Assembly (NCBI RefSeq): GCF_001927245.1
Contig: NZ_MJUX01000006.1
Location: 62,001-126,000 of the forward strand
DNA: 64,000 nucleotides
Source of the DNA: Acuticoccus yangtzensis
Lineage (GTDB): Bacteria; Pseudomonadota; Alphaproteobacteria; Rhizobiales; Amorphaceae
Reading direction: 5' to 3'
Part shown: positions 8,932 through 36,243 of the stretch, one piece after another
How the letters are laid out: each line of letters opens with the position of its first letter
Position numbering within the stretch: the stretch's first letter is position 1
Translations under genes and position numbers: made by a program
The notes under the pieces: model-generated
What the model was told of the DNA's origin: nothing
The model's database searches: none
Seen by the model: only the letters and a program-made list of their open reading frames with translations

Positions 8932-10926
8932 TCAGGCGGCGCGGACGGCGCTGCGTGCGGCCCGTGCCACCGCCGCGGCATCGCCGCCGAGGTCGCCCAG
9001 CGCCATGATGAGCGGGCCGAGGTGCGCTGCATAACGCTGCCACACCGCCGAGCTTCCGGCGTAGATGGGCTGACGAACCTGCCCGGCGCTCGCCGTCATC
9101 ACCGGGCGCTCCACCATATGGGGGGCGAGGCAGGCCGGGTTGAACTTCAAGCCGCAGAAGGCCAGCAGCATGCGCGTCGTCACCGCGGGTTCCTCGGTGA
9201 GATCGCGATAGTCGAGCGGCAGGATGCGGCCGGGGAAGAGCTGACCCCAGCGGGCCACCAGCGCGGCCTCCTGGCGCATATAATGCCCGATCGCGGCGAG
9301 ATCGCTCGCATAGGAATTCCCGGCGCCGGTGAAGTCGTGCTTATAGATCGACCAGCCCGTGGCGACGGCGTCGCGCGACATGAGGACGAAGCGGGCTTCC
9401 GGGAAGACCGCCGCGATGAGGCCGACCCGGCGCGTGTTGGAGAGGCTCTTGTCCACCACCACCGGAGCCGACAGCGGAAGTTCGGCGATCGCCGCACGGT
9501 AGGCCGCGCGCACTTCGCCGATGATCGCCTGGCACGGCGCCTCCCCGGCTTCGAGACCCGCGATCAACGGCTGCGCGGCCCTCTCGAAGGCGCCGGTTTC
9601 CCCTGCTCCGTCGACCTCCGGATGGGCCGCCAGGATCTGCTCGGCGAGGCTGGATCCGGACCGCGGCATGCCGACGATGAAGAGGGGGCGCGGGCCGTCG
9701 TCGGTCCTCCCCTGCCAGGCGGGCAGGGCCCCCGCCTCGAACACCTTGGCGATCGCCGCGAATTGACGCTCCACATGGTCCGGGTCGTAGGGCCGCTCGG
9801 CATAGCGGGCGGCGTTGGCGGCGGAAAGGTGGGCGAAGGCGCGCTCGGACTGGCCGGTCGCGTCGTAGGCGGTGCCGAGGGCGAAGTTCAGGCGGGTGCG
9901 CGCGCCTGACCGCTGCTCTTGCTCCAGCAGCGCCTCCATCTCGGCGATGTGCGGGTGACCGGCGCGGTAGGTGGTCCAGTTGGCGAGGTTGGCGTGGGCG
10001 CTAGCGTAGGCCGGGTCGATGGCGAGGGCCGCCCGCAGCGTCTCCGCCGCCTCCCCCGCGCGGCCCATCTCGCCCAGCACCTGGCCGAGATTGCAGAGCG
10101 CGACCTCGGACTGCGGCTCGTGCGCCAGCGCGGTGCGGAAGGCGGCGGCCGCGTCCTCGTGGCGCAGGCAGTCGCGCAGGGCGTTGCCGCGCTTGATGTG
10201 GATCTCGGCCGCCGCCGCATCGTCGCGGACGAGGTGGAGAGCACGGTCATAGTCGGCAAGCGCCGCGGCGTAGGCGCCGGCGTGGTGGTGGGCAAGGCCG
10301 CGGTCGGTGAGGAGCGTCCACTCGGCCGGAGCGAGCGCGATCGCGGCGCCGAACGCCGAGGCGGCCTTCGCCGCGTCGCCCGCGCGCATCAGCGCCGCGC
10401 CGAGAAGGCGGTGCATGTCGGCGTTGAACGGCTCCACGCGCACCGCTTCCATGTTGAAGGCGATGCCCGCCTTGAACTCGCCGATGTCGGCGAGCAGCGT
10501 CGCGAGGCGCAGGAGGGCCGCGGTGAAGGTCGGTTGGGCCTTGATGGCAGCGGTGTGGGCGGCGATGGCGGCGGCGCGGTTGCCGAGCCGCTCCTCGATG
10601 ATGCCGAGGGCGAATTGCAACTCCACCGCGTCCGGGTAGCGCGCGGCGAGGGGGCGCGCGATCTGCAGCGCCTCGGCATGCGCGCCGGCGACCGCGAGCG
10701 CCTTCATGCGGCCCATCGCCTTGGCGAGATTGGCCGCTGAGTCGCCCTCGTGCGGAACGATGCGGGCCGGCTCGGTCAGCGCCTTCAGCCCGTCGCGGGC
10801 GCGGACATTTTCGGGGAATCGCGAGAGGATTTCGAGGTAGGCCGCGTGCGCTTCGAGGTACTGGCCCGCGTCGGCGAGCTTCTGCGCCGAGATGAGGATG
10901 CGGTTGATCGGCAGTGCAGCAGTCAT
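8932..10926 (-). CDS. TPR-repeat sulfotransferase family protein
   Basis: A 664-residue protein. About the first 370 residues form tetratricopeptide repeats (for example DAAKAASAFGAAIALAPAEW, EDAAAAFRTALAHEPQSEVA and GEAAETLRAALAIDPAYASA). The rest is a sulfotransferase domain with the PAPS 5'-phosphosulfate loop FIVGMPRSGSSLAEQIL and the 3'-phosphate segment FVLMSRDAVATGWSIYKHDF. This architecture resembles tyrosylprotein sulfotransferase-like bacterial proteins. The start at 10926 has a GGAGGCG site and is preferred over a longer frame. It has no nearby PAPS synthesis genes and no signal peptide. Acceptor unknown. Confidence 0.88.
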   Translation of the reverse strand: MTAALPINRILISAQKLADAGQYLEAHAAYLEILSRFPENVRARDGLKALTEPARIVPHEGDSAANLAKAMGRMKALAVAGAHAEALQIARPLAARYPDAVELQFALGIIEERLGNRAAAIAAHTAAIKAQPTFTAALLRLATLLADIGEFKAGIAFNMEAVRVEPFNADMHRLLGAALMRAGDAAKAASAFGAAIALAPAEWTLLTDRGLAHHHAGAYAAALADYDRALHLVRDDAAAAEIHIKRGNALRDCLRHEDAAAAFRTALAHEPQSEVALCNLGQVLGEMGRAGEAAETLRAALAIDPAYASAHANLANWTTYRAGHPHIAEMEALLEQEQRSGARTRLNFALGTAYDATGQSERAFAHLSAANAARYAERPYDPDHVERQFAAIAKVFEAGALPAWQGRTDDGPRPLFIVGMPRSGSSLAEQILAAHPEVDGAGETGAFERAAQPLIAGLEAGEAPCQAIIGEVRAAYRAAIAELPLSAPVVVDKSLSNTRRVGLIAAVFPEARFVLMSRDAVATGWSIYKHDFTGAGNSYASDLAAIGHYMRQEAALVARWGQLFPGRILPLDYRDLTEEPAVTTRMLLAFCGLKFNPACLAPHMVERPVMTASAGQVRQPIYAGSSAVWQRYAAHLGPLIMALGDLGGDAAAVARAARSAVRAA

Positions 10927-25871: not shown

Positions 25872-27686
25872 TCAGGCCGCCGCGGCCTGGACCTCGGCGG
25901 GCGGCATCGGCGTCTGGCGCAGGCGCGTCAACGACACCGGCTCGGCGTGCTCTTCGGGGATGGCGCAGATCCCCGCCCGCGTCATCGCCCGGCCGACGGC
26001 GGGGTGTGCCGTCACCACCGCGAAGGGCGCGGCGAGGACGAGCCCGGCGACCACCGGCAGCGCGAACCAGATCATCTGCGGCGCCCCGCTCAGGATGATG
26101 ACGAGGAGCGCCGTGCCGAACAGCGTCTGCGGCAGGAAGGTGGACAGCGCCTCGCCCCAGGTGATGCTGCGCACGGACCGCGCCTGCGCCTGCCACTCGA
26201 TCCGCTTGCCGAACAGGAGGCCGAAGGCGAAGACGGCGGTCGCGAAGGCCACCGCGGGCGCCATCAGCGTCGACGCGAAAAGCTCGAACAGGCCGCCGAG
26301 CGCGGTCTTCACCCGCCCGCCATAACGGCGCGACTGGTTGGGGCTCGCAATGGTTGCGAGCAGGCCCATGATCTTCGGCGCGAAACACATGAAGAGAACC
26401 ACGCCGACGAGGGCGAGCCCCCACCCCTCGGGCACCCCCGCAACGCCGCCGCCGAGGATGGTCAGCGCACCCAACACGATGAACGTCATCCACGCCGGGG
26501 CGCCGAGGAACATGACGACCGCGAGCGCGAGCTGCAGACGGCTGATCGGCTTCAGCCCCGGCATGCCGATGAGCCACAAATACTGGAAGTTCCCCTGGCA
26601 CCATCTGAGATCGCGGCGGACATAGTCGGGCAGCGTCGGCGGGTTCTCCTCCCAGCTCTCGCTCTCCTCGGCGATCACGCGCACATGGTAGCCGCAGCGG
26701 CGCATCATCACCGCTTCGACCTGGTCGTGGCTCATGATCGCCCCGCCGAGAGGCCCCGTCCCGGACAGCACCGGCAGGTGGCAGTGCGCGTGGAAAGGGG
26801 CCATGCGGATCAGCGCGTTGTGTCCCCAGTAGGGTCCGCAATCGCCCGTCCACCACACCGAGCCTGCGGTGAAGGCCCGCATCCCGTGGCGCATGCCGAA
26901 CTGGAAGGTGCGCGTGAACATCGACGTCGACGGCGTGCCGATGGCGAGCGTCTGCAAAATTCCGACCCGCGGCGCCGCCTGCATGGTTCTCACCAGGCGC
27001 AGCACGGTGCGGGCGGACATGTAACTGTCGGCGTCCAACGTCAGGAAAAAGGTGTAGTCGTTCGCGTGACGGCCGCAGAATTCCTGGATGTTCCCGGCCT
27101 TGTAACCCGCATTGTCCATCCGGCGGCGGTAGAAGATCTGCCCCGGCCGCGCGCTCTCGCGCCGCCAACGGGCGACGGTGTCGACCTCCTCCGCGGCGAT
27201 CGCCGGGTCGTTGGTGTCGGACAGGATGTGGATGTCGAAATGCTCCGCCTCGCCCTCGGCCTCCAGCTCCTCGAACATCAGCTTGAGGCGGCGCGTCGCC
27301 ACCGCGACGTCCTCGTTGCGCAGCGTCATCGCGATGGCGGTCCGGGTGGTGATGGCGCTGCCGGTCGCCTCGTCCAACGCCAAGGGATCGTTCGGCACCG
27401 GCCCGCGGGCGATCAGCAGGGTGCCGATGATGGCGTTCCAGAACCCGATCGAGAGCCACGGCAGGGTGATGACGAAGGCGACCCACATCACCGCACCGCT
27501 GAGGCTGATGCCGCCGCCGAACATGAGGCCCGCCATTGCCGCCCCCAGACCCGCCACCGTGACGAGGTTGAGGACCGCGAAGATGATCCGTCGCCGGAAG
27601 AGACGCTTCGGCAGGTCATCGCCGCCGCTGATCTCGCGAAGGGGCGAGAGCCACGCGGGTTTCCCGGCCGGTGTCATTTCAACCAT
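25872..27686 (-). CDS. Glucans biosynthesis glucosyltransferase (MdoH/OpgH-like)
   Basis: A 604-residue inner-membrane family 2 glucosyltransferase. An N-terminal pair of transmembrane segments (FAVLNLVTVAGLGAAMAGLM and VMWVAFVITLPWLSIGFW) precedes a cytoplasmic GT2 domain with HILSDTNDP, LTLDADSYM (DxD), GHNALIR and RRDLRWCQGN (the QxxRW-equivalent), followed by at least four more membrane segments. It polymerises UDP-glucose into osmoregulated periplasmic glucans. The partner opgG is not adjacent. Starts at 27686 or at 27737 (17 codons longer) are possible; the shorter leaves room for a divergent promoter. Confidence 0.88.
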   Translation of the reverse strand: MVEMTPAGKPAWLSPLREISGGDDLPKRLFRRRIIFAVLNLVTVAGLGAAMAGLMFGGGISLSGAVMWVAFVITLPWLSIGFWNAIIGTLLIARGPVPNDPLALDEATGSAITTRTAIAMTLRNEDVAVATRRLKLMFEELEAEGEAEHFDIHILSDTNDPAIAAEEVDTVARWRRESARPGQIFYRRRMDNAGYKAGNIQEFCGRHANDYTFFLTLDADSYMSARTVLRLVRTMQAAPRVGILQTLAIGTPSTSMFTRTFQFGMRHGMRAFTAGSVWWTGDCGPYWGHNALIRMAPFHAHCHLPVLSGTGPLGGAIMSHDQVEAVMMRRCGYHVRVIAEESESWEENPPTLPDYVRRDLRWCQGNFQYLWLIGMPGLKPISRLQLALAVVMFLGAPAWMTFIVLGALTILGGGVAGVPEGWGLALVGVVLFMCFAPKIMGLLATIASPNQSRRYGGRVKTALGGLFELFASTLMAPAVAFATAVFAFGLLFGKRIEWQAQARSVRSITWGEALSTFLPQTLFGTALLVIILSGAPQMIWFALPVVAGLVLAAPFAVVTAHPAVGRAMTRAGICAIPEEHAEPVSLTRLRQTPMPPAEVQAAAA

Positions 27687-27802
27687 TGCAATGTTGGCCT
27701 TTTCTCTTCCTGCACCACGTAGCAAGGACAGCGCCATCCGCGCGATACGAAATGACGTTCAACCTCACGACGGGCGATATGGACACTGCACAGAATTCGT
27801 CC

Positions 27803-28780
27803 ATGACGGTGCGACAAGCCAAAGCACTTTGGTGTGATGGCAGGCACCGCTTCAGCGTCCGGACCGCCCCCTCAGCCGCGCCGGGGCCGGGCGAGGTCGC
27901 CATCGCCGCCGAACACTCCGCGATCAGCCGCGGCACCGAGCGTCTCGTGGCCGAAGGGCGCGTGCCCGCCTCGGAGGCCGAGCGAATGCGCTGCCCCTTT
28001 CAGGAGGGGGATTTCCCGTTCCCGGTGAAGTACGGCTACGCCCTCGTGGGACGCATCGTCGCGGGCCCTGCCGCGCGCATCGGCGAGCGGGTGTTCGCCC
28101 TCCACCCGCATCAGAGCCTCAGCGTAGTTCCGGAGGGGGCCGCCAACAGGGTGCCGGAGGATGTGCCGGCGCGCCGGGCCACCCTCGCCGCCAACATGGA
28201 GACCGCGCTCAACATCGTCTGGGATTCGGGGGCGGCGCCCGGCGACAGGGTGCTCGTCATCGGCGCCGGCGTGGTGGGGCTGTGCGTCGCCCATATCCTC
28301 GGCCGCATGCCCGCCGTCACGGTGACGGTGGTCGACCGCGACCCCGCCAAGGGCGCCGTGGCCGAGGCGATCGGCGCGCGCTTCGCCGCCGAGCCGCCGC
28401 GGGACGTCGACGTCGCGATCAACGCCAGCGGCAACGGTGCGGCGCTCGCCACCGCGATCGAGGCGGCGGGCGTCGAGGCGCGCATCGTCGAGGCGAGCTG
28501 GCTCGGCGAGGGTGAGACAGCGGTCCCCCTCGGCGGCCCCTTCCACGCGCGCCGCCTCTCCATCGTCTCCTCGCAAGTCGGCCGACTGCCTGCCGCCAAG
28601 GCGCCGCGCTGGGACTTCGCGCGCCGCATCGCCGCGGCCCTGTCGCTGCTCGCCGACCCTCGCCTCGACCATCTCCTGACCCATTCTTTGACGCTCAGCG
28701 AGGCGCCGGCCGCACTGCCGCGTCTCTTGCGGGACGATGGCCCCCTCGCCATCACCCTCGATTATTCCTCGGAGACCTGA
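27803..28780 (+). CDS. MDR-family (zinc-type alcohol dehydrogenase-like) oxidoreductase without zinc ligands
   Basis: A 325-residue medium-chain dehydrogenase/reductase. The N-terminal GroES-like domain includes PGPGEVAIAAEHSAISRGTE, and the Rossmann domain has VLVIGAGVVGLCVAHILG and a VVDRDP adenosine-binding Asp. The catalytic Cys of zinc enzymes is replaced (SAISRGTE) and the GHE motif is missing (YGYALVGRIV), so catalysis cannot use the usual active-site zinc. It is the first gene of a four-gene operon and its TGA directly abuts the next ATG. An alternative start is 27779. Likely an NAD(P)H-dependent reductase acting on a pathway intermediate; this is inferred from context. Confidence 0.82.
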   Translation: MTVRQAKALWCDGRHRFSVRTAPSAAPGPGEVAIAAEHSAISRGTERLVAEGRVPASEAERMRCPFQEGDFPFPVKYGYALVGRIVAGPAARIGERVFALHPHQSLSVVPEGAANRVPEDVPARRATLAANMETALNIVWDSGAAPGDRVLVIGAGVVGLCVAHILGRMPAVTVTVVDRDPAKGAVAEAIGARFAAEPPRDVDVAINASGNGAALATAIEAAGVEARIVEASWLGEGETAVPLGGPFHARRLSIVSSQVGRLPAAKAPRWDFARRIAAALSLLADPRLDHLLTHSLTLSEAPAALPRLLRDDGPLAITLDYSSET

Positions 28781-29179
28781 ATGTACGCCCTCGAAGTCCG
28801 CGACCACATCATGATCGCCCACAGTCTGCCCGGCGAGGCGTTCGGACCCGCCCAGAAGATGCACGGGGCGACCTTCGTGGTGGACGCCGCATTCTTCGCC
28901 GAACGGCTCGGCCCGAACGACATCGTCATCGACATCGGCCTTGCCACCGACACGCTGAAGGCGATCCTGTCGACGCTCAACTACGCCAACCTCGACGAAC
29001 TGCCGGACTTCGCCTCGCAGCGCTCCACGACCGAGGTGCTGTGCCGCTGGATCTTCGACAAGCTGGCCGCCGCCTGCCGTGACGGCACGCTCGGCGAGGA
29101 CGGACAAGCCGTCGCCAAGATCCGCGTCACGCTGAACGAGTCGCACATCGCCCGCGCCTGGTACGAGGCCGCGCTCTGA
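28781..29179 (+). CDS. 6-pyruvoyl-tetrahydropterin synthase/QueD-fold protein, divergent
   Basis: A 132-residue protein with the PTPS/QueD layout: an early IAHSLPGEAF with the first zinc-type His near residue 14, KMHGATFVVDAAF near 28, VIDIGLATDTLKAIL, LNYANLDELPDF, a TTEVLCRWIFDKL helix and a conserved glutamate in TLNESHIA. Canonical members have CxxxHGH and DHxxLN; here the catalytic Cys is absent, HGH is HGA, and the DH pair is NY. So one zinc ligand and the Cys/Asp/His catalytic residues are missing. It starts immediately after the MDR stop and overlaps the glycosyltransferase by one base. It may bind a pterin-like compound or carry out a different reaction. Confidence 0.82.
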   Translation: MYALEVRDHIMIAHSLPGEAFGPAQKMHGATFVVDAAFFAERLGPNDIVIDIGLATDTLKAILSTLNYANLDELPDFASQRSTTEVLCRWIFDKLAAACRDGTLGEDGQAVAKIRVTLNESHIARAWYEAAL

Positions 29180-30312
29180 TGCGCATCGCCTTCGCGATTC
29201 CCGGCGACATCGACACGCCGACCGGGGGTTATCGCTACGACCGACGCATCCTCGCCGAGCTTCGCGCGGCGGGGCACGAGGTCGACCACGTCGTGCTGAA
29301 CGGCGGCTTCCCGGACCCGCTGCCGGAGGAGGCCGAGGCGGCAATCGCGACCCTTGCCGCGCTGGAGGCGGACGCCGTTCTGGTGGACGGCCTCGCCTTC
29401 AGCGCGTTGCCGGTGGAGGGGCTGCGGAGCGTGCGCGCGCCGCTCGTCGCGCTGATCCATCACCCGCTGGCGCTGGAGACGGGCCTTTCCCCCGCCGCCG
29501 CGGCCGCCCACCGCAGCCGCGAGACGGCGGCCCTCACCGCCGCCGCCGGTGTCGTCGTCACCAGCGAGCCGACCCGCGACACTCTGCTGGCGGACTACGC
29601 CGTGCCGCCGGAGCGGATCGACGTCGCCGTCCCCGGTCTCGATCCGTCGTGGTTCCAGCAACGCGACCCGTCCCCGGAGGGTGACGCGGTCCCGCTGATC
29701 GTCTCGGTCGGTTCGATCATCAGCCGCAAAGGCCATGATGTTCTGCTGGATGCCCTCGGCCGCCTGATGGATCACCCTTGGCGTGCCGTTGTCATCGGCT
29801 CTAAAACCTGGGATAGTTCATTGACTGCCGCGTTGGAGCGGCAGATCTCGCATTTCGGTGGCCGGGCCTCTCTCGCCGGCGCATTGAGCGAGGAGGACAT
29901 TCGCGCGCATTACCGGGCCGCCAGCGTCTTCTCCCTTGCAACGCGCTATGAAGGGTTCGGCATGGTCTTCCTGGAAGCGATGGCCTCGGGCCTGCCGGTC
30001 GTCGGAACGCGCGGAGGTGCCGTGCCCTCCGTCGTGCCGGACAGCGCCGGCCTTCTCGTCGACGTCGACGATTCCGCCGCCCTCGCGGCAGCGCTGCGCC
30101 GTGTGCTGACGGAACCGGCTTTAGCCGCCCGCCTGTCGCACGGTGCGCGTGAGGCCGCCCGCTCCGCGTCGAGCTGGGCCGAATCGGCCGCCCTCATCGC
30201 CCGCCGGCTGGAGGCCGCCTCCCGCGCCCCGGCCTCGCACAGCGCCACGCCATCCGCCGCCGGCGACGGCACCGCGCCATCGGCCACCGCCACACAGACG
30301 GTCCTCTCATGA
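29179..30312 (+). CDS. Glycosyltransferase family 4 protein
   Basis: A 377-residue GT-B glycosyltransferase. The N-terminal acceptor domain starts MRIAFAIPGDIDTPTGGYRY; the donor domain has VSVGSIISRKGHDVLLDAL and the E-x7-E motif in TRYEGFGMVFLEAMASGLPV followed by GGAVPSVV. The C-terminal 30 residues are Ser/Ala/Thr-rich. No signal peptide or membrane segment. It is translationally coupled to both neighbours (TGATG and ATGA). In cyanobacteria and Chlorobium related GT4 enzymes glycosylate pterins, which makes a role on a GTP-derived product reasonable but unproven here. Confidence 0.88.
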   Translation: MRIAFAIPGDIDTPTGGYRYDRRILAELRAAGHEVDHVVLNGGFPDPLPEEAEAAIATLAALEADAVLVDGLAFSALPVEGLRSVRAPLVALIHHPLALETGLSPAAAAAHRSRETAALTAAAGVVVTSEPTRDTLLADYAVPPERIDVAVPGLDPSWFQQRDPSPEGDAVPLIVSVGSIISRKGHDVLLDALGRLMDHPWRAVVIGSKTWDSSLTAALERQISHFGGRASLAGALSEEDIRAHYRAASVFSLATRYEGFGMVFLEAMASGLPVVGTRGGAVPSVVPDSAGLLVDVDDSAALAAALRRVLTEPALAARLSHGAREAARSASSWAESAALIARRLEAASRAPASHSATPSAAGDGTAPSATATQTVLS

Positions 30313-31088
30313 GCTTCAGTGCCGATTGGCTGGCCCTGCGCGCGAAGGCCGACCGCAGGGCCCGGTCCGACCTCGCCGAACGCCTCGCCGACCTGACCGA
30401 CGCGCTCCCCCGGCCGCTCAAGGTGATCGACCTCGGGTCCGGCACCGGCGCCAACGTGCGCGAGCTCTTCCCCAAGATCCGCCCGCCCCAGGACTGGACG
30501 CTGGTCGATGCCGACGCCGAGCTTCTGAAACGCGCCAAGGTCAATCTGGAGCATCATGGCGGGCTCAGGATCGCGCTTCACCACGCGGACCTGATGGTCG
30601 AACCGTTGTGGACCGAGCACCCCCACATCGTCACCGCCTCGGCGCTGTTCGACATCGTGTCCGAAGCCTTCGTCGACCGGCTGGCAAGCGCCCTCGCCCG
30701 CCAGAAGACGCCGCTCTTCTCGGTTCTCACCTACGACGGTCGGTTGAAGGTGACGCCCGATCACCCCTTCGACGCGGCGATGATCGACGCCTTCAACGCT
30801 CACCAGCGCGGCGAGAAATCGTTCGGCCGTGCGCTGGGGCCGGACGCCTCTGACACGTTGACCGCCACGTTGCGCCGCTATGGTGCCACCGTGCTGGAGG
30901 ACGACAGCCCGTGGCGGCTGGAGGCCCGTCAGGACAACGAGCTGATGCAAGCCAAGTTCGACGGCTGGGCCGCCGCCGCGCGCGAGATGATGCCGGACCA
31001 GGCCGACGCGATCGACAATTGGCGGGCCGCACGGCGCACCGCGGCCACCGTCTTCGTCGGCCACCGCGACCACCTCGCCACCTTCTGA
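30309..31088 (+). CDS. Class I SAM-dependent methyltransferase
   Basis: A 259-residue Rossmann-fold methyltransferase. The SAM-binding motif I is VIDLGSGTGANVRE near residue 40; the acidic strand-2 residue is in WTLVDADAELL, and motif III-like ADLMVEPLW follows. The middle VTASALFDIVSEAFVDRL resembles small-molecule methyltransferases. It overlaps the glycosyltransferase by four bases and closes the four-gene operon. A hairpin at 31101-31124 follows. Acceptor unknown. Confidence 0.85.
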   Translation: MSFSADWLALRAKADRRARSDLAERLADLTDALPRPLKVIDLGSGTGANVRELFPKIRPPQDWTLVDADAELLKRAKVNLEHHGGLRIALHHADLMVEPLWTEHPHIVTASALFDIVSEAFVDRLASALARQKTPLFSVLTYDGRLKVTPDHPFDAAMIDAFNAHQRGEKSFGRALGPDASDTLTATLRRYGATVLEDDSPWRLEARQDNELMQAKFDGWAAAAREMMPDQADAIDNWRAARRTAATVFVGHRDHLATF

Positions 31089-31100
31089 CAGCCGCGTTCC

Positions 31101-31124
31101 GGCGCCCCCCGTCTCAGGGGCGCC
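31101..31124 (+). terminator. Possible terminator hairpin after the methyltransferase gene
   Basis: GGCGCCCC and GGGGCGCC form a perfect 8-bp stem around an 8-base loop, 13 bases after the stop codon. There is no T-run, so intrinsic termination is uncertain. Confidence 0.4.
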
Positions 31125-31134
31125 CGCCTCGACG

Positions 31135-31188
31135 GTGTCCAGCCTCGGCGTTGTCCAGCCTCAGCGGTGTCCAGCCTCAGCGGTGTCC
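31135..31188 (-). repeat. 16-bp tandem repeat (three copies plus a partial) spanning the stop of the RibD-like gene
   Basis: The unit GTGTCCAGCCTC(A/G)GCG is repeated head to tail at 31135-31150, 31151-31166 and 31167-31182, with a partial GTGTCC at 31183-31188. The TCA at 31177-31179 is the complement of the stop codon of the RibD-like gene, so its last codons seed the repeat. Confidence 0.9.
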
Positions 31189-31869
31189 GCGGCGCAGGTC
31201 GCAATCAAACACGACGTCACCGCCGGAGAGGAGCGTGACCTCCATCGCCGGGCGGATCGCCTCGTCGAGCCGGGCGATCGGCGGCAGCGCGATCCCTGTC
31301 GGCCCGGAGCCGATGATGATCGGTCCGACCAGCACCATCAGCCGGTCGATCGCCCCGGCGGCGATGAAGCCGCTCACCGTCGCAGCGCCGCCCTCGATGA
31401 GGAGGCGCCTCATGCCGCGCTCGGCCAGAGCGCCGACGATCGTCGCCGGCGACAGCGGCGCGGGCGCGTCGATCGTTTCCACGCCGGCCGGATCGTCCGC
31501 GAGCGCCGGGCCGAAGACGATGCGCCGGCTGCCGTCGTCGGCCAGCAGCCGCAGCGCGGCCCCCGCCGAGCGGCGCTGGTCGATGAGGACGCGCGCAGGG
31601 TTCGGTCCCTCCACATGGCGCACGGTGAGTTGCGGATCGTCCGCCCGCGCGGTGCCTGAGCCGATGACCACCGCATCGACGTTGGCGCGCAACGCATGCA
31701 GCAGCGCGATCGCCTCCGGTCCGTTGATGTAGTGGGAATGTCCCGTGGGGGTGGCGATGCGCCCGTCGAGCGACTGGCCGAGCTGCGCCACCACCATCGG
31801 GTCGCCCCGCCGCGCCGCTTCGGCCAGCGCGGTGACGGTTGCCGAAGGAGGGATCAACGGCCGCCCCAC
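31177..31869 (-). CDS. RibD C-terminal (pyrimidine reductase) family protein, no deaminase domain
   Basis: About 230 residues of the RibD_C/dihydrofolate-reductase-like fold. Diagnostic segments are QLGQSLDGRIAT, LRANVDAVVIGSGTARADDPQLTV, and LLIEGGAATVSGFIAAGAIDRL. The deaminase half of bifunctional RibD is absent, so the enzyme should reduce a ribosylamino-pyrimidine without prior deamination or act on another substrate. The start is uncertain: a GTG at 31869 overlaps cytochrome b561 by 16 bases, and an ATG at 31797 is the minimal alternative. Proximity to a GTP cyclohydrolase II gene suggests the two act in sequence. Confidence 0.82.
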   Translation of the reverse strand: MGRPLIPPSATVTALAEAARRGDPMVVAQLGQSLDGRIATPTGHSHYINGPEAIALLHALRANVDAVVIGSGTARADDPQLTVRHVEGPNPARVLIDQRRSAGAALRLLADDGSRRIVFGPALADDPAGVETIDAPAPLSPATIVGALAERGMRRLLIEGGAATVSGFIAAGAIDRLMVLVGPIIIGSGPTGIALPPIARLDEAIRPAMEVTLLSGGDVVFDCDLRRGHR

Positions 31870-32423
31870 ATGCGTTGAAACACGCCGTCCCGCTTCACAA
31901 TGAGGTGATAAAAAGCAGCGGCGATGTGAAGTCCCGCGACCCCCATCAGCACGAAGGCCGCCGTCGCGTGCCAATCGGCGACGGTCTCGTAGAACACCTT
32001 GTCGGGCGCGGCGAGCGCGGGCAGATCGAACCAGCCGAACACCGTGCGGGCGGGGAAGAGGGAAACCGCATACCACCCGAGCAGCGGCAGGAGGACGAGG
32101 AGCCCGTAAAGGGCAACGTGGGTCAGCCCGGCCACCGCCTTCTGCAAGGCGGGCATCGGCACGGGCGGAGGCGCCCCAAATATCAAGCGGTTAAGCACCC
32201 GCAGGAGAGTCAGCCACAGGATGAGGAAGCCGACCAGCTTGTGGCTGGAATAGAGCCCGTTGGTGAGCCCGTCCCAGATGCCGAGATCGTTGCCGCGCCA
32301 TGTCATCGTCAGCCCGGTTACGAGCATGAAGGCGACCGCAAGCACGCTGACCCAGTGGAAGGTGCGTGCGAGCGCCCCATAATGAAGGTGAGCCGGGGGG
32401 CCGGCGGCGGGCGTTGTGGTCAT
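31854..32423 (-). CDS. Cytochrome b561 family protein
   Basis: A 189-residue four-helix membrane cytochrome. Helices are around VSVLAVAFMLVTGLTMTW, KLVGFLILWLTLLRVLNRLI, HVALYGLLVLLPLLGWYAV and AAFVLMGVAGLHIAAAFYHL. Heme-ligand histidines are visible in RTFHW, SSHKLVG, LTHVALYG and GLHIAAAFYH. Family members (CybB, SoxR-reducing or superoxide-oxidising) pass electrons between quinone and a partner. It overlaps the RibD-like gene and is divergent from the GTP cyclohydrolase gene; it may be co-transcribed with the reductase. Confidence 0.88.
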   Translation of the reverse strand: MTTTPAAGPPAHLHYGALARTFHWVSVLAVAFMLVTGLTMTWRGNDLGIWDGLTNGLYSSHKLVGFLILWLTLLRVLNRLIFGAPPPVPMPALQKAVAGLTHVALYGLLVLLPLLGWYAVSLFPARTVFGWFDLPALAAPDKVFYETVADWHATAAFVLMGVAGLHIAAAFYHLIVKRDGVFQRMWGGR

Positions 32424-32617
32424 CGCGGGTCTCCCTGCGGCGGTCTGTCGCCCATCTGGTCGCGACCGTCGTTCAGCCCCAAACTATCCATGTCGGCGGT
32501 CGCGGGTGCTTCCGCCGCTGTGCGCCTGGGTTGCATAACGGCGCCGCCCGACCATGGTGTGTCGGGACGACATTGGCAAACCCAATTCCTAAATGGGCTG
32601 CTGGAGATGAAACGTTG

Positions 32618-33319
32618 ATGCACTTGTCCGAAGCCCTCTCCTTCGCCGGGCTGAACCTCGTCGCCGTCACGCCGCTGGAGATCCGGCGGGAAGTCGTCGC
32701 CTGCGTCGCCTTCGAGCCGCTCGGCCTGTCGATGGGCGATTTCCCCCACCTCGCCATCCTCTTCAGCAAACGCGATTGGGCGGGCGAGGCGGACATCCAC
32801 AAGGCGGTGATGCAGGAATTTTCCGGCGCCCGGAACGTTCTGACGCGGCTCCATTCGGAATGCTTGCTGGGCGACGCGTTCGGCTCCTCCATGTGCGACT
32901 GCGGCAGCCAGATGCGCGTGGCGATGGAGGAGATGCAGGCCCGCGGGGAAGGCCTCTTCATCTACCTTCGCCAGGAGGGGCGGGGGATCGGCATGCGTGC
33001 CAAGCTCGACTGCCTGGCGCTCCAATATGGCTTCGTGAAGGGCAAGCGCACCGCGCGCCGCCACACCTCCGACGAAGCGAACCTCGCGCTCGGCTTCGAC
33101 GTGGACGAACGCTCCTTCGACATCGCCGGCAAGCTCTTGAAGGCGCTCGACATCGCGTCGGTTCAGCTCGTGACGGGCAACCCGCGCAAGATCGAGGATA
33201 TCGCCGCCGAGGGCGTCACGATCGACGAGACGAAGGACCTGTGGTGCGGGTCGATGTCGGCGCGCGCGGCCGAGGAGTTCGCCGAGAAGATCGCGCGCGG
33301 CTATACCTACCAGCGGTGA
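32618..33319 (+). CDS. ribA: GTP cyclohydrolase II
   Basis: A 233-residue GTP cyclohydrolase II, which opens the imidazole ring of GTP to give 2,5-diamino-6-ribosylamino-4-pyrimidinone phosphate. The zinc site is intact (LHSECLLGDAFGSSMCDCG, three Cys), as are YLRQEGRGIGMRAKL and the catalytic Asp and Arg in DVDERSFDIAG. The usual TNNP is TGNP. There is no fused DHBP synthase (RibB) domain. The start at 32618 has GGAGATG upstream and is preferred to an upstream extension. Classical riboflavin genes (ribB, ribH, ribE) are not in the window, so this may be a dedicated copy for the adjacent cluster; the symbol denotes the enzyme family. Confidence 0.9.
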   Translation: MHLSEALSFAGLNLVAVTPLEIRREVVACVAFEPLGLSMGDFPHLAILFSKRDWAGEADIHKAVMQEFSGARNVLTRLHSECLLGDAFGSSMCDCGSQMRVAMEEMQARGEGLFIYLRQEGRGIGMRAKLDCLALQYGFVKGKRTARRHTSDEANLALGFDVDERSFDIAGKLLKALDIASVQLVTGNPRKIEDIAAEGVTIDETKDLWCGSMSARAAEEFAEKIARGYTYQR

Positions 33320-34021: not shown

Positions 34022-34699
34022 TCAGGCCGCCTGATAGACGCGGCGCGAGACGAGCGCCGAGCCCAGCACGCCCGCGCCCATCTTGGCGCCCGCCAGCACG
34101 GCGAGGTCGACCAGCGGCTCGGCCAGAACCACCAGCATGTAGGCGCCGCCGAAGGAGGCCACGCTCTCGAGGTTCGCCGCGCCGAAGCCCTGGCCGTAGA
34201 AGGCCCAGAAGGCGACCCAGGCGACGATGCCGCCCTGGTAGGTGGTCGAAAGCACCAGCGCCTGACGGTAGGTGAGGTCCACATAGGCCGTGTTCGGCGC
34301 GATGATCCGCTTGGCGATGACGCTGACGGCCCACAGCGGGACGAGCAGCGTGGTGACGTTGACGGCGTACATCGGCAGGTCCGCCGGGGCGAAGAAGAGG
34401 CCCTGGAGGAGGAGGCCGGCGGCGAGGCCGATCGCGGCCGGGCCGCCGCCCAGGATCAGGAACAGCGTGGAGCCGAGGATGAAGTGGACCTCGGAGACGC
34501 CGACCGGATAGTGCGGCAGCACCTGGAAGAAGCAGAAGACGGCCGCCGTCGCGATGACGCTGCGGCTCAGAAGCGCGCTCACACCGTCCTGGCGGACCGT
34601 GTCGAAGGCGAGCTTGCCGGCGACGACGGCGCCGCCCGCGGCCGTCGCCAGGCTGAGCATCATCTTGGCGCCGTGGACGATTCCGGGTTCGATATGCAT
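34022..34699 (-). CDS. cbiM: Energy-coupling factor transporter permease, CbiM family (solitary)
   Basis: A 225-residue multi-pass membrane protein with the diagnostic N-terminus MHIEPGIVHGAK, whose early His residues coordinate Co2+ or Ni2+. Hydrophobic segments include VIATAAVFCFFQVL, GSTLFLILGGGPAAIGLAAG and MYAVNVTTLLVPLWAVSV. The start at 34699 gives MHI at position 1-3 and has AAAGGAC upstream. No cbiN, cbiQ or cbiO follows: the next gene is a convergent GNAT. A cobalamin riboswitch precedes it, so it should be repressed when B12 is abundant, consistent with cobalt supply for B12 synthesis. Confidence 0.88.
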   Translation of the reverse strand: MHIEPGIVHGAKMMLSLATAAGGAVVAGKLAFDTVRQDGVSALLSRSVIATAAVFCFFQVLPHYPVGVSEVHFILGSTLFLILGGGPAAIGLAAGLLLQGLFFAPADLPMYAVNVTTLLVPLWAVSVIAKRIIAPNTAYVDLTYRQALVLSTTYQGGIVAWVAFWAFYGQGFGAANLESVASFGGAYMLVVLAEPLVDLAVLAGAKMGAGVLGSALVSRRVYQAA

Positions 34700-34740
34700 G
34701 TGTTGTCCTTTCTGCACCCACCGTGCAGGGAGTTGGGGAT

Positions 34741-34960: not shown

Positions 34961-35154
34961 ATCGCTGGGCAAAATCGGTCAGTCTGCGCTGCGACGCAAG
35001 CGCCGTCTGCGGCCGCAGGGCAAAAACCGGACGATCTCCGGCCTTATGCCGCCCAGAACGGCACAATACGCCCAATAATGACGCAACCGAGGCTCTTCCG
35101 CCCGCCTTGCGGGGACGCTACCGTCCCGCGTCACGCACAACAGACGAGCCCGAT

Positions 35155-36243
35155 ATGATGCGTTTTGCGCCACTCTTCGCTCTGGCCGCCACGGCTGCCC
35201 TCGGGGCCGCGGTAGGGGCCGTCACGCCCGCCGCCGCGCAGGACAAGACCAAGGCCTGCTTCATCTATGTCGGATCGGTCGGCGATTTCGGCTGGACCTA
35301 CCAGCACGACCAGGGCCGCAAGGCGGTCGAAGCGGAGTATGGCGACAAGGTCGAGACCGCGTTCCTGGAGAACGTGGCCGAAGGCGCCGACGCCGCCCGC
35401 GCCATCGAGCGCATGGCCCGCTCCGGCTGCGACATCATCTTCACCACATCGTTCGGCTTCATGGACGCCACGAACCGGGTCGCCGGCCGCTTCCCCGACA
35501 TCAAGTTCGAGCACGCCACCGGCTACAAGCGCGACCACCCGAACGTCTCCACCTACAACTCGAAATTCTACGAAGGCCGCTATGTGATCGGGCAGATCGC
35601 GGCCGCGGTGTCCGAGACCGGGATGGCCGGCTACATCGCCTCCTTCCCGATCCCGGAGGTCGTGCGCGGCATCAACGCCTTCCTTCTGGGCGCGCAGTCG
35701 GTGGATCCGGACTTCTCGCTGAAGGTCATCTGGGTGAACACCTGGTTCGACCCGCCGCGCGAGGCGGACGCGGCCCGCGCCCTCATCGACCAGGGCGTCG
35801 ACATCATCACCCAGCACACCGACTCCACGGCGCCGATGCAGGTGGCAGCCGAGCGCGGCGTGCACGCCTTCGGCCAGGCGTCCGACCAGATCGCCTTCGG
35901 CCCTGAGACGCAGCTCACCGCGATCGTCGACGACTGGGCGCCCTACTACATCGAGCGCGTCGGCGCGGTGATGAACGGCACGTGGGAGCAGCAGGACAGC
36001 TGGCACGGCCTCGACACCGGCAACGTCGCCATGGCGCCTTTCACCAACATGCCCGAAGAGGTCGCCGCGAAGGCGGCCGAGACCGTCGCTGCGATCGCGT
36101 CCGGCGAGCTCGAGCCCTTCACCGGGCCGATCAACAAGCAGGACGGCACGGTCTGGCTGGAAGACGGCGTGGAAGCCGAAGAGGGTGAGCTTCTCGGCCT
36201 GAACTTCTACGTCGAGGGCGTCGACGGCCAGCTTCCCCAATAA
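35155..36243 (+). CDS. BMP family ABC transporter substrate-binding protein
   Basis: A 362-residue exported protein with a signal peptide ending near AAAQ (residue 29). The mature part is the basic membrane protein/Med family: FIYVGSVGDFGWTYQHDQGR, IIFTTSFGFMDATNRVAGRF, DIKFEHATGYKRDHPNVSTY and DIITQHTDSTAPMQVAAERG. These proteins bind purine nucleosides or similar ligands for ABC import. No ATPase or permease gene is adjacent, so it is an orphan. ATG codons at 35155 and 35158 are both possible starts. It is divergent from the riboswitch-cbiM unit. Confidence 0.9.
   Translation: MMRFAPLFALAATAALGAAVGAVTPAAAQDKTKACFIYVGSVGDFGWTYQHDQGRKAVEAEYGDKVETAFLENVAEGADAARAIERMARSGCDIIFTTSFGFMDATNRVAGRFPDIKFEHATGYKRDHPNVSTYNSKFYEGRYVIGQIAAAVSETGMAGYIASFPIPEVVRGINAFLLGAQSVDPDFSLKVIWVNTWFDPPREADAARALIDQGVDIITQHTDSTAPMQVAAERGVHAFGQASDQIAFGPETQLTAIVDDWAPYYIERVGAVMNGTWEQQDSWHGLDTGNVAMAPFTNMPEEVAAKAAETVAAIASGELEPFTGPINKQDGTVWLEDGVEAEEGELLGLNFYVEGVDGQLPQ

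What the first reader, a model, noticed from the sequence alone, without database searches (positions are those of the whole stretch)
27803..33319. Candidate biosynthetic cluster for a modified GTP-derived pyrimidine or pterin
Seen: MDR dehydrogenase, PTPS/QueD-fold protein, GT4 glycosyltransferase and SAM methyltransferase are fused by zero-base junctions or 1-4 base overlaps into one operon. Directly next to it are a RibD-type reductase lacking the deaminase domain, a cytochrome b561 and a GTP cyclohydrolase II. Known: GTP cyclohydrolase II makes a ribosylamino-pyrimidine from GTP, RibD_C reduces its ribose, PTPS-fold proteins bind pterins, and GT4 enzymes glycosylate pterins in cyanobacteria. 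Inference: these genes make a reduced, glycosylated and methylated product that is neither riboflavin nor tetrahydrofolate, perhaps a redox cofactor or signal linked to cytochrome b561. No ribB, ribH or folE is present in the window.
Basis: partly seen in the sequence, partly recalled or inferred. Interest (0 to 1): 0.75.

Follow-up and report, generated by a model that had tools for sequence, protein, structure and literature searches.

The report
Conserved orphan GTP-to-pteridine-like biosynthesis cluster
Bacteria from several distant groups share a set of genes that appears to turn GTP into an unknown vitamin-like compound distinct from riboflavin and folate; this locus is one member of that set, with an unusual first enzyme.

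Summary
The set is co-conserved. Across 150 genomes, cluster-type RibD_C is in 31 of 39 with this PTPS and 1 of 111 without. Where RibD_C is not beside the PTPS, b561 and/or GCH2 sit with it in 7 of 8 genomes. The host has other riboflavin genes. The PTPS is 'PTPS-IV': 116 of 116 lack a zinc His, the catalytic Cys is Ala or Gly. Its solved relative is Streptomyces SCO6650; a Streptomyces locus with a 92% identical PTPS has MDR, GT4, MT, GCH2 and a creatininase. Product unknown; best reading: a ribityl-diaminopyrimidine or ribityl-pterin, usually methylated and glycosylated. PTPS-IV near GCH2/RibD_C was noticed in 2017. New here: the two-module definition and a divergent GCH2 in this genus.

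The parts
25872..27737 (-). MdoH/OpgH-like membrane glycosyltransferase (GT2), divergent from the operon
   Evidence: NCBIfam MdoH models, best E 3.7e-212; two of the MdoH models over their cut-offs (NF003958, NF003962), the best-scoring one under its own; family in 81 of 117 loci, median about -3 kb
27803..28780 (+). MDR dehydrogenase, distantly BchC-like; catalytic-zinc ligand motifs not recognisable (Ser86 for Cys, Tyr123 for the His of GHE, in the numbering of the 369-residue frame from 27671; motif positions recalled)
   Evidence: PF00107; TIGR01202 BchC far under its cut-off; conserved columns; in 111 of 117 loci
28781..29179 (+). PTPS-IV subfamily protein (FGPAQ...HGA), without the PTPS/QueD catalytic residues
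   Evidence: PF01242; profile of its family finds SCO6650/3d7j, E 1.9e-54; only PTPS found in the genome; H14, H28, A30, E85, E120 in 116 of 116
29179..30312 (+). GT4 glycosyltransferase
   Evidence: PF00534; in 106 of 117 loci
30309..31088 (+). class I SAM methyltransferase, own subfamily, no PDB sequence relative at E 0.01
   Evidence: PF13649; model pLDDT 94.2; matches generic small-molecule methyltransferase folds; in 101 of 117 loci
31177..31869 (-). stand-alone RibD_C pyrimidine reductase (GTG start at 31869 inferred; frame open to 32076)
   Evidence: PF01872 4.1e-34, no deaminase domain; high-scoring subfamily in 32 of 150 genomes
31854..32423 (-). cytochrome b561-type membrane protein, upstream of and overlapping RibD_C
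   Evidence: PF01292; beside RibD_C in 6 of 8 genomes where RibD_C is not beside PTPS
32618..33319 (+). GTP cyclohydrolase II of a divergent lineage seen in three genomes of this genus, with an inserted active-site loop and no long N-terminal region
   Evidence: PF00925 9.5e-35; alignment to 2bz0; zinc Cys and Arg conserved; tree

Best explanation
The locus encodes a dedicated pathway from GTP to a non-flavin, non-folate pyrimidine or pteridine, built from two modules. Entry module: GCH2 opens GTP to a ribosylaminopyrimidine 5'-phosphate, either deformylated (DARPP) or still formylated (FAPy/AFRPP; some relatives carry a creatininase-type candidate formamidase nearby). The lone RibD_C then reduces ribosyl to ribityl; with no deaminase the 2-amino group stays. 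b561 is the membrane redox partner of this module. Tailoring module: PTPS-IV binds the pterin-like ring through its retained Glu/Thr residues but cannot do PTPS or QueD chemistry; MDR, MT and usually GT4 oxidise or reduce, methylate and glycosylate the product. The MdoH-like enzyme and other envelope genes suggest delivery to or through the cell envelope. Shown: gene identity, co-conservation, residue losses, other riboflavin genes in the genome. Inferred: reaction order, the ribityl-diaminopyrimidine or 8-ribityl-pterin product, the role of b561, the envelope destination.
For: Co-conservation: 117 PTPS-centred loci (window included) with MDR 111, GT4 106, MT 101, MdoH-like 81, RibD_C 71, GCH2 47, b561 47. 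One co-directional series GCH2-MDR-PTPS-MT-RibD_C in two Paracoccus loci (L144, L146) and a Palleronia plasmid (L163). Profile in 150 genomes of the order: PTPS x RibD_C 31/8/1/110, Fisher 1.5e-23; PTPS x MT 38/1/3/108, 7e-31. In 8 of the 31 genomes RibD_C is not within 6 kb of PTPS; beside it are b561 in 6 (L167, L169, L170, L172, L173, L174) and GCH2 in 4 (L168, L169, L170, L172), one or the other in 7; L171 ends at a contig edge. Five of the 8 are on the same contig as PTPS and clearly apart (G064, G065, G070, G106, G142), and 5 of these 5 have b561 and/or GCH2. Own genome has RibD, RibH, RibBA and another GCH2 elsewhere. GCH2: three zinc Cys and the R128 equivalent in 50 of 50, Tyr105 equivalent in only 6 of 50. 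PTPS: H14, H28, A30, E85, E120 in 116 of 116, A24 in 115. Creatininase family in 12 of 127 loci (one representative checked by Pfam), next to GCH2 in S. fungicidicus. L157 PTPS 92% identical to SCO6650.
Against: 8 of 39 PTPS-IV genomes have no cluster-type RibD_C. GCH2 was found near PTPS in only 47 of 117 loci, and one of these (L063) is a distant GCH2 on a long branch, perhaps not part of the set. Three of the 8 'apart' cases are on different contigs, G137 merely split by a contig end and G052 and G089 cut by contig ends. Two Streptomyces plasmids hold PTPS-IV with no match to the partner genes within 9 kb. GT4 and MT are not found in every locus. Loss of Tyr105 is not specific: the genome's other GCH2 also has Leu there, and the alignment at the inserted loop of the window protein is uncertain. 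The p-values ignore shared ancestry; by family, PTPS-IV occurs in 19 families of the sample and RibD_C in 17 of these. No metabolite or enzyme evidence.
Confidence: 0.55

Rival explanations
1. The GCH2 and RibD_C copies boost or divert riboflavin synthesis (for example secreted flavin), and the MDR-PTPS-GT4-MT operon beside them does something unrelated.
For: GCH2 and RibD_C are riboflavin-type enzymes; the authors of PMC9478397 propose separate flavin branches for secretion and internal use in S. meliloti (Discussion read).
Against: No deaminase domain in RibD_C. 31 of 32 genomes with cluster-type RibD_C have PTPS-IV, also where the two are not adjacent. One co-directional series in L144, L146, L163. 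RibH is elsewhere.
Confidence: 0.15
2. PTPS-IV serves coenzyme F420 synthesis, as stated for archaea from unpublished work (PMC5041015, passages read).
For: The review's statement; F420 also starts from a GTP-derived ribityl-diaminopyrimidine (recalled).
Against: CofD (PF01933) was not found in the own genome; 4 of 39 PTPS-IV genomes have it against 11 of 111 others (counted): no association.
Confidence: 0.03
3. The product is a reduced ribityl-pyrimidine or pteridine that ends in a cell-envelope glycoconjugate; the sugar-side genes (MdoH-like, CDP-alcohol phosphotransferase, flippase-like, sulfatase-like) are the point of the pathway.
For: In 127 loci: MdoH-like 80, CDP-alcohol phosphotransferase 17, sulfatase-like 14, flippase-like 7 (Pfam of representatives, where the sulfatase-like one had no match; its label comes from the annotation).
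Against: Apart from MdoH-like they are accessory and variable; some Rhodobacterales loci keep MDR, PTPS, MT and RibD_C without MdoH-like or the others (L144, L146; L161).
Confidence: 0.2
4. Neighbourhood is only inherited gene order without shared function.
For: Many loci come from one bacterial class.
Against: Same families together in loci titled beta- and gammaproteobacteria and in Actinomycetota, on plasmids, with rearranged order, and co-occurrence of modules that are not adjacent.
Confidence: 0.04

Closest known systems
PTPS-IV neighbourhood of IPR007115 (AGeNNT, PMC5445326, cluster-node 62, 561 sequences; passages read)
   Same: FGPAQ motif; PF00925 (GCH2) and PF01872 (RibD_C) in the neighbourhood
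   Different: The passages read propose no pathway, call PF00925 GTP cyclohydrolase I/FolE2, and name none of MDR, GT4, MT, b561 or MdoH
Streptomyces coelicolor SCO6650 (PDB 3d7j) and SCO6655
   Same: SCO6650 is a PTPS-IV relative, E 1.9e-54; S. fungicidicus L157 (PTPS 92% identical to it) has CDP-alcohol phosphotransferase, MDR, PTPS, GT4, MT, creatininase and GCH2 together
   Different: No RibD_C annotated or matched in the L157 stretch; the S. coelicolor cluster itself was not fetched, and that SCO6655 lies near SCO6650 is read from the locus numbers only. Recalled, papers not held: SCO6650 lacks zinc and catalytic triad, SCO6655 makes the formylated product
Riboflavin pathway (RibA, RibD reductase half)
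   Same: GCH2 and RibD_C families
   Different: No deaminase domain here; the genome's RibD with deaminase and its RibH are on another contig
AFRPP formamidase route of Rhizobiales (BrbF, PMC9478397; abstract, passages, Discussion and one Results section read)
   Same: Creatininase-type protein acting on the formylated GTP-cyclohydrolase product
   Different: BrbF serves riboflavin; no creatininase is in the window (two in the genome, on contigs C28 and C12)
Pterin glucosyltransferase of cyanobacteria and toxoflavin ToxA-E (both recalled)
   Same: GT4 on a pterin; GCH2 + RibD-like + methyltransferase on a GTP-derived ring
   Different: Not compared by sequence here; neither is recalled to use PTPS-IV or lone RibD_C with b561

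Membership tests
PTPS-IV subfamily | FGPAQ signature (named in PMC5445326) | tested here: met
   F21 G22 P23 Q25 in 116 of 116, A24 in 115; followed by H28 G29 A30 in 116 of 116
PTPS-IV subfamily | GCH2 and RibD_C in the genomic neighbourhood | tested here: met
   window; in 47 and 71 of 117 loci
QueD / PTPS-I, II, III enzyme | catalytic Cys (or Glu) and HGH zinc motif | tested here: not met
   Ala at the Cys position, HGA for HGH, Asn/Tyr at the Asp-His positions (residue roles partly, partly recalled)
Riboflavin biosynthesis locus | deaminase domain and lumazine synthase with GCH2 and reductase | tested here: not met
   no deaminase in the window RibD_C; only RibH found is on contig C23
Coenzyme F420 biosynthesis | CofD present | tested here: not met
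   none found in own genome; 4 of 39 PTPS-IV genomes
GTP cyclohydrolase II | three zinc Cys and catalytic Arg | tested here: met
   50 of 50 including the window
GTP cyclohydrolase II making deformylated product | Tyr105 equivalent | tested here: inconclusive
   6 of 50 keep Tyr; the window has His by alignment across a 9-residue insertion; effect on product recalled
Streptomyces L157 (SCO6650-like) cluster | MDR, PTPS-IV, GT4, MT and GCH2 together | tested here: met
   window and L157; L157 adds creatininase and CDP-alcohol phosphotransferase and lacks RibD_C in the stretch seen

The most novel reading that the evidence does not exclude
A widespread, undescribed GTP-derived molecule class: a 2-amino-8-ribityl-pterin (or ribityl-diaminopyrimidine), usually methylated and glycosylated, assembled with a T-fold protein that lost PTPS catalysis, redox-coupled to the membrane through cytochrome b561 and delivered to the cell envelope, in Pseudomonadota and Actinomycetota.
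Probability: 0.3. Interest if true: 0.85.

Novelty: new variant of a known kind. Interest (0 to 1): 0.62.

Why it matters
Defining it as two co-occurring modules turns an old puzzle, what the odd Streptomyces PTPS and GCH2 paralogs are for, into a gene-deletion and metabolomics test in harmless laboratory strains, and warns against annotating these genes as queuosine or riboflavin genes.

Tried and rejected
Tried and dropped: F420 (no association). Regulatory motif upstream of MDR: Pho, FNR, EcfG, ECF11 and LexA-type patterns in 0 to 2 of 111 loci on either strand; the enriched 8-mers are GC-rich strings or look like the start of the MDR coding sequence (ALWY; read by eye). Photolyase family PF04244 as a partner: 25 of 39 PTPS-IV genomes against 31 of 111 others, p 1e-4, but absent for example from the three f5 and two f52 genomes with PTPS-IV, so a weak, ancestry-confounded lead. 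Fold of the methyltransferase: generic small-molecule methyltransferases, no substrate clue. PDB sequence relatives of the MdoH-like protein (E 0.001) and of its frequent neighbour, family 10 (E 0.1): none. Origin of the divergent window GCH2: in 289 genomes of the class (which did not include its two congeners G064 and G131) three partial matches at 45-48% identity; in plasmids and phages nothing at 60% or more. Literature: ten searches; among the listings and the passages opened I saw no paper that describes the whole cluster. This covers only the open-licence library. Frames opposite MDR, PTPS and MdoH formed families (shadow ORFs) and were not counted as genes.

Dropped or chosen before counts: two duplicate genomes (L101, L137); G035 (E 7e-4) counted as PTPS-negative and G083, a partial PTPS, as positive; RibD_C-positive set at 236 bits or more (next 138), MT-positive at 144 bits or more. 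X_L004 was left out of the tree, where long branches (L063, L001, L157, E. coli) have unsure places. One search used a stricter gene choice (PTPS itself kept in 95 of 127 loci), so its counts are lower bounds; several loci are cut by contig ends. Loci were collected by their PTPS, so they say nothing of clusters without it. Ten of the 20 plasmid records were opened.
Full report
WHAT IS THERE.

NOT THE ONLY RIBOFLAVIN-TYPE GENES. The genome has four GCH2 domains, two RibD_C domains, one PTPS, that of the window, and one RibH. Pfam shows a full deaminase-reductase RibD at L006 on contig C23, a RibBA at L003, a GCH2 whose N-terminal region matches no Pfam family at L001, and a GTP_CH_N-type protein at L004. 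RibD and RibH are within 2 kb on C23. In the translation I do not see the zinc cysteines in the GCH2 half of L003.

CO-CONSERVATION. A PTPS search of 150 genomes of the order gave 40 hits: 38 strong, one strong but partial (G083) and one marginal (G035). In 118 loci, 117 after removing two duplicates and adding the window, the neighbours were MDR 111, GT4 106, MT 101, MdoH-like 81, RibD_C 71, GCH2 47 and b561 47. Order varies: in six betaproteobacterial loci the MT is at about -5.5 kb on the other strand; in Paracoccus L144 and L146 and the Palleronia plasmid L163, GCH2, MDR, PTPS, MT and RibD_C run in one direction. Of 20 plasmid records with the PTPS ten were opened: L157 and L160 to L165 show cluster genes by annotation; L166 has no annotation but matches MDR and GT4; L158 and L159 show the PTPS without partners.

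TWO MODULES. A model of the lone RibD_C (A2) splits 150 genomes cleanly: 32 at 236 bits or more, the next at 138. Against PTPS-IV the table is 31 both, 8 PTPS only, 1 RibD_C only (G123, 56% complete), 110 neither, Fisher p 1.5e-23; for the methyltransferase (A3) 38, 1, 3, 108, p 7e-31. These p-values ignore shared descent; PTPS-IV occurs in 19 families of the sample and RibD_C in 17 of them. In 23 of the 31 the two lie within 6 kb; in 8 they do not. In those 8, b561 is beside RibD_C in 6 and GCH2 in 4, one or the other in 7. Five are clear cases on one contig, 58 kb or more apart (G064, G065, G070, G106, G142), and b561 and/or GCH2 sits with RibD_C in 5 of 5. The other three are on different contigs: G137 looks only split by a contig end (the RibD_C contig also holds GT4 and MT ends), G052 and G089 are cut at contig ends. 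Entry (GCH2, RibD_C, b561) and tailoring (MDR, PTPS, GT4, MT) genes thus co-occur without being adjacent, the strongest sign of one pathway.

RESIDUES. In the alignment with a PTPS of known structure (1b66; rat origin and residue roles recalled), the subfamily has Ala for the catalytic Cys, Ala for one zinc His and Asn/Tyr at the Asp-His pair, and keeps the Thr-Glu that holds the pterin. That H14 and E120 match the first zinc His and the late pterin-binding Glu is inferred; they lie outside the printed alignment. In 116 sequences H14, H28, A30, E85 and E120 never vary, A24 is Ala in 115 and Gly in 1, N67 is Asn in 87, Y68 is Tyr 110/Phe 6. The solved relative is SCO6650, 3d7j. I recall, without the paper, that SCO6650 lacks zinc and PTPS activity. 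GCH2: in 50 sequences (47 loci, three plasmids) the three zinc Cys and Arg128 are invariant; Tyr105 is Tyr in 6, otherwise Leu 23, His 9, Phe 7, Val 3, Met 1, Trp 1. I recall that replacement of this Tyr in SCO6655 stops the reaction at the formylated product (paper not held; its title was seen in a reference list). SCO6655 itself appears in one held paper only as a GTP cyclohydrolase II in an expression table (PMC2853524, passage). A formylated product would fit the creatininase-family genes, the family of the AFRPP formamidase BrbF, in 12 of 127 loci. Two cautions: the genome's other GCH2 has Leu too, and two creatininases lie elsewhere in the genome.

A VARIANT IN THIS GENUS. In the GCH2 tree the window protein and those of two congeners (L038, L168) form a clade with 100/100 support on a branch of 2.57, apart from the other 53 rows. 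The window and L038 proteins are 233-236 residues, without the N-terminal region of the common form of about 370-400 residues, and carry an inserted loop of about 9 residues near the Tyr105 position; L168 was not inspected for these. Nothing close was found in 289 genomes of the class, a sample that did not hold the two congeners. In G064 this GCH2 sits with RibD_C about 0.9 Mb from the PTPS operon (L168). The usual GCH2 seems to have been replaced while the pathway was kept (inference).

ACCESSORY GENES. In 127 loci (representatives by Pfam): FkbM-type methyltransferase 27, an unnamed protein beside MdoH 20, CDP-alcohol phosphotransferase 17, sulfatase-like 14, creatininase 12, flippase-like 7. 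They point to the envelope but vary.

MECHANISM. Most likely: GTP to FAPy/DARPP (GCH2, with a formamidase where needed), ribosyl to ribityl (RibD_C, 2-amino group kept), ring handling on PTPS-IV, then MDR, MT and usually GT4; b561 as membrane redox partner. Steps one and two rest on family chemistry, the rest is inference. F420 is disfavoured and riboflavin does not fit.

PRIOR KNOWLEDGE. AGeNNT 2017 (PMC5445326, passages) already saw PF00925 and RibD_C around PTPS-IV; Zallot 2016 (PMC5041015, passages) attributes PTPS-IV to archaeal F420 from unpublished work. S. fungicidicus L157, whose PTPS is 92% identical to SCO6650, shows the actinobacterial version. No paper on the whole set or its product was seen in the ten searches listed under Tried and rejected.

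VERDICT. Interest 0.62.

Noticed in passing
L001:1420-2553 (own genome contig C12): The genome's other GCH2 has Leu at the Tyr105 position. PMC9478397 (Discussion) says the enzyme making AFRPP in BrbF-containing bacteria is still to be found; a GCH2 of this type is a candidate.
   Followed up: partly
L003:1474-2571 (own genome contig C27): RibBA whose GCH2 half appears to have lost the zinc cysteines (read by eye from the translation; domains).
   Followed up: partly
L070, L077, L084, L086, L088, L089, L091, median about -7 kb from PTPS: A sigma-factor-like family appears in 9 of 127 loci (these seven, L158, L159), and a second regulator-like family in 7; by eye they resemble EcfG and PhyR of the general stress response. 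No matching promoter stood out upstream of MDR.
   Followed up: partly
150 genomes of the order: PF04244 photolyase-related proteins are commoner in PTPS-IV genomes (25 of 39 versus 31 of 111); ancestry not corrected for.
   Followed up: partly
window 34022-34717 minus: CbiM-like cobalt-uptake membrane protein next to the cluster.
   Followed up: no
window about 35100-36243 plus: Looks by eye like a BMP/nucleoside-type ABC substrate-binding protein (frame listed; no family search made).
   Followed up: no
L158 and L159 at 9001-9396: PTPS-IV genes on Streptomyces plasmids without the partner genes, 72-76% identical to SCO6650.
   Followed up: no
L090 about -4.7 kb from PTPS and relatives, 20 loci in all: Conserved protein next to MdoH-like with no Pfam or PDB match, twin-arginine-like start by eye.
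   Followed up: partly
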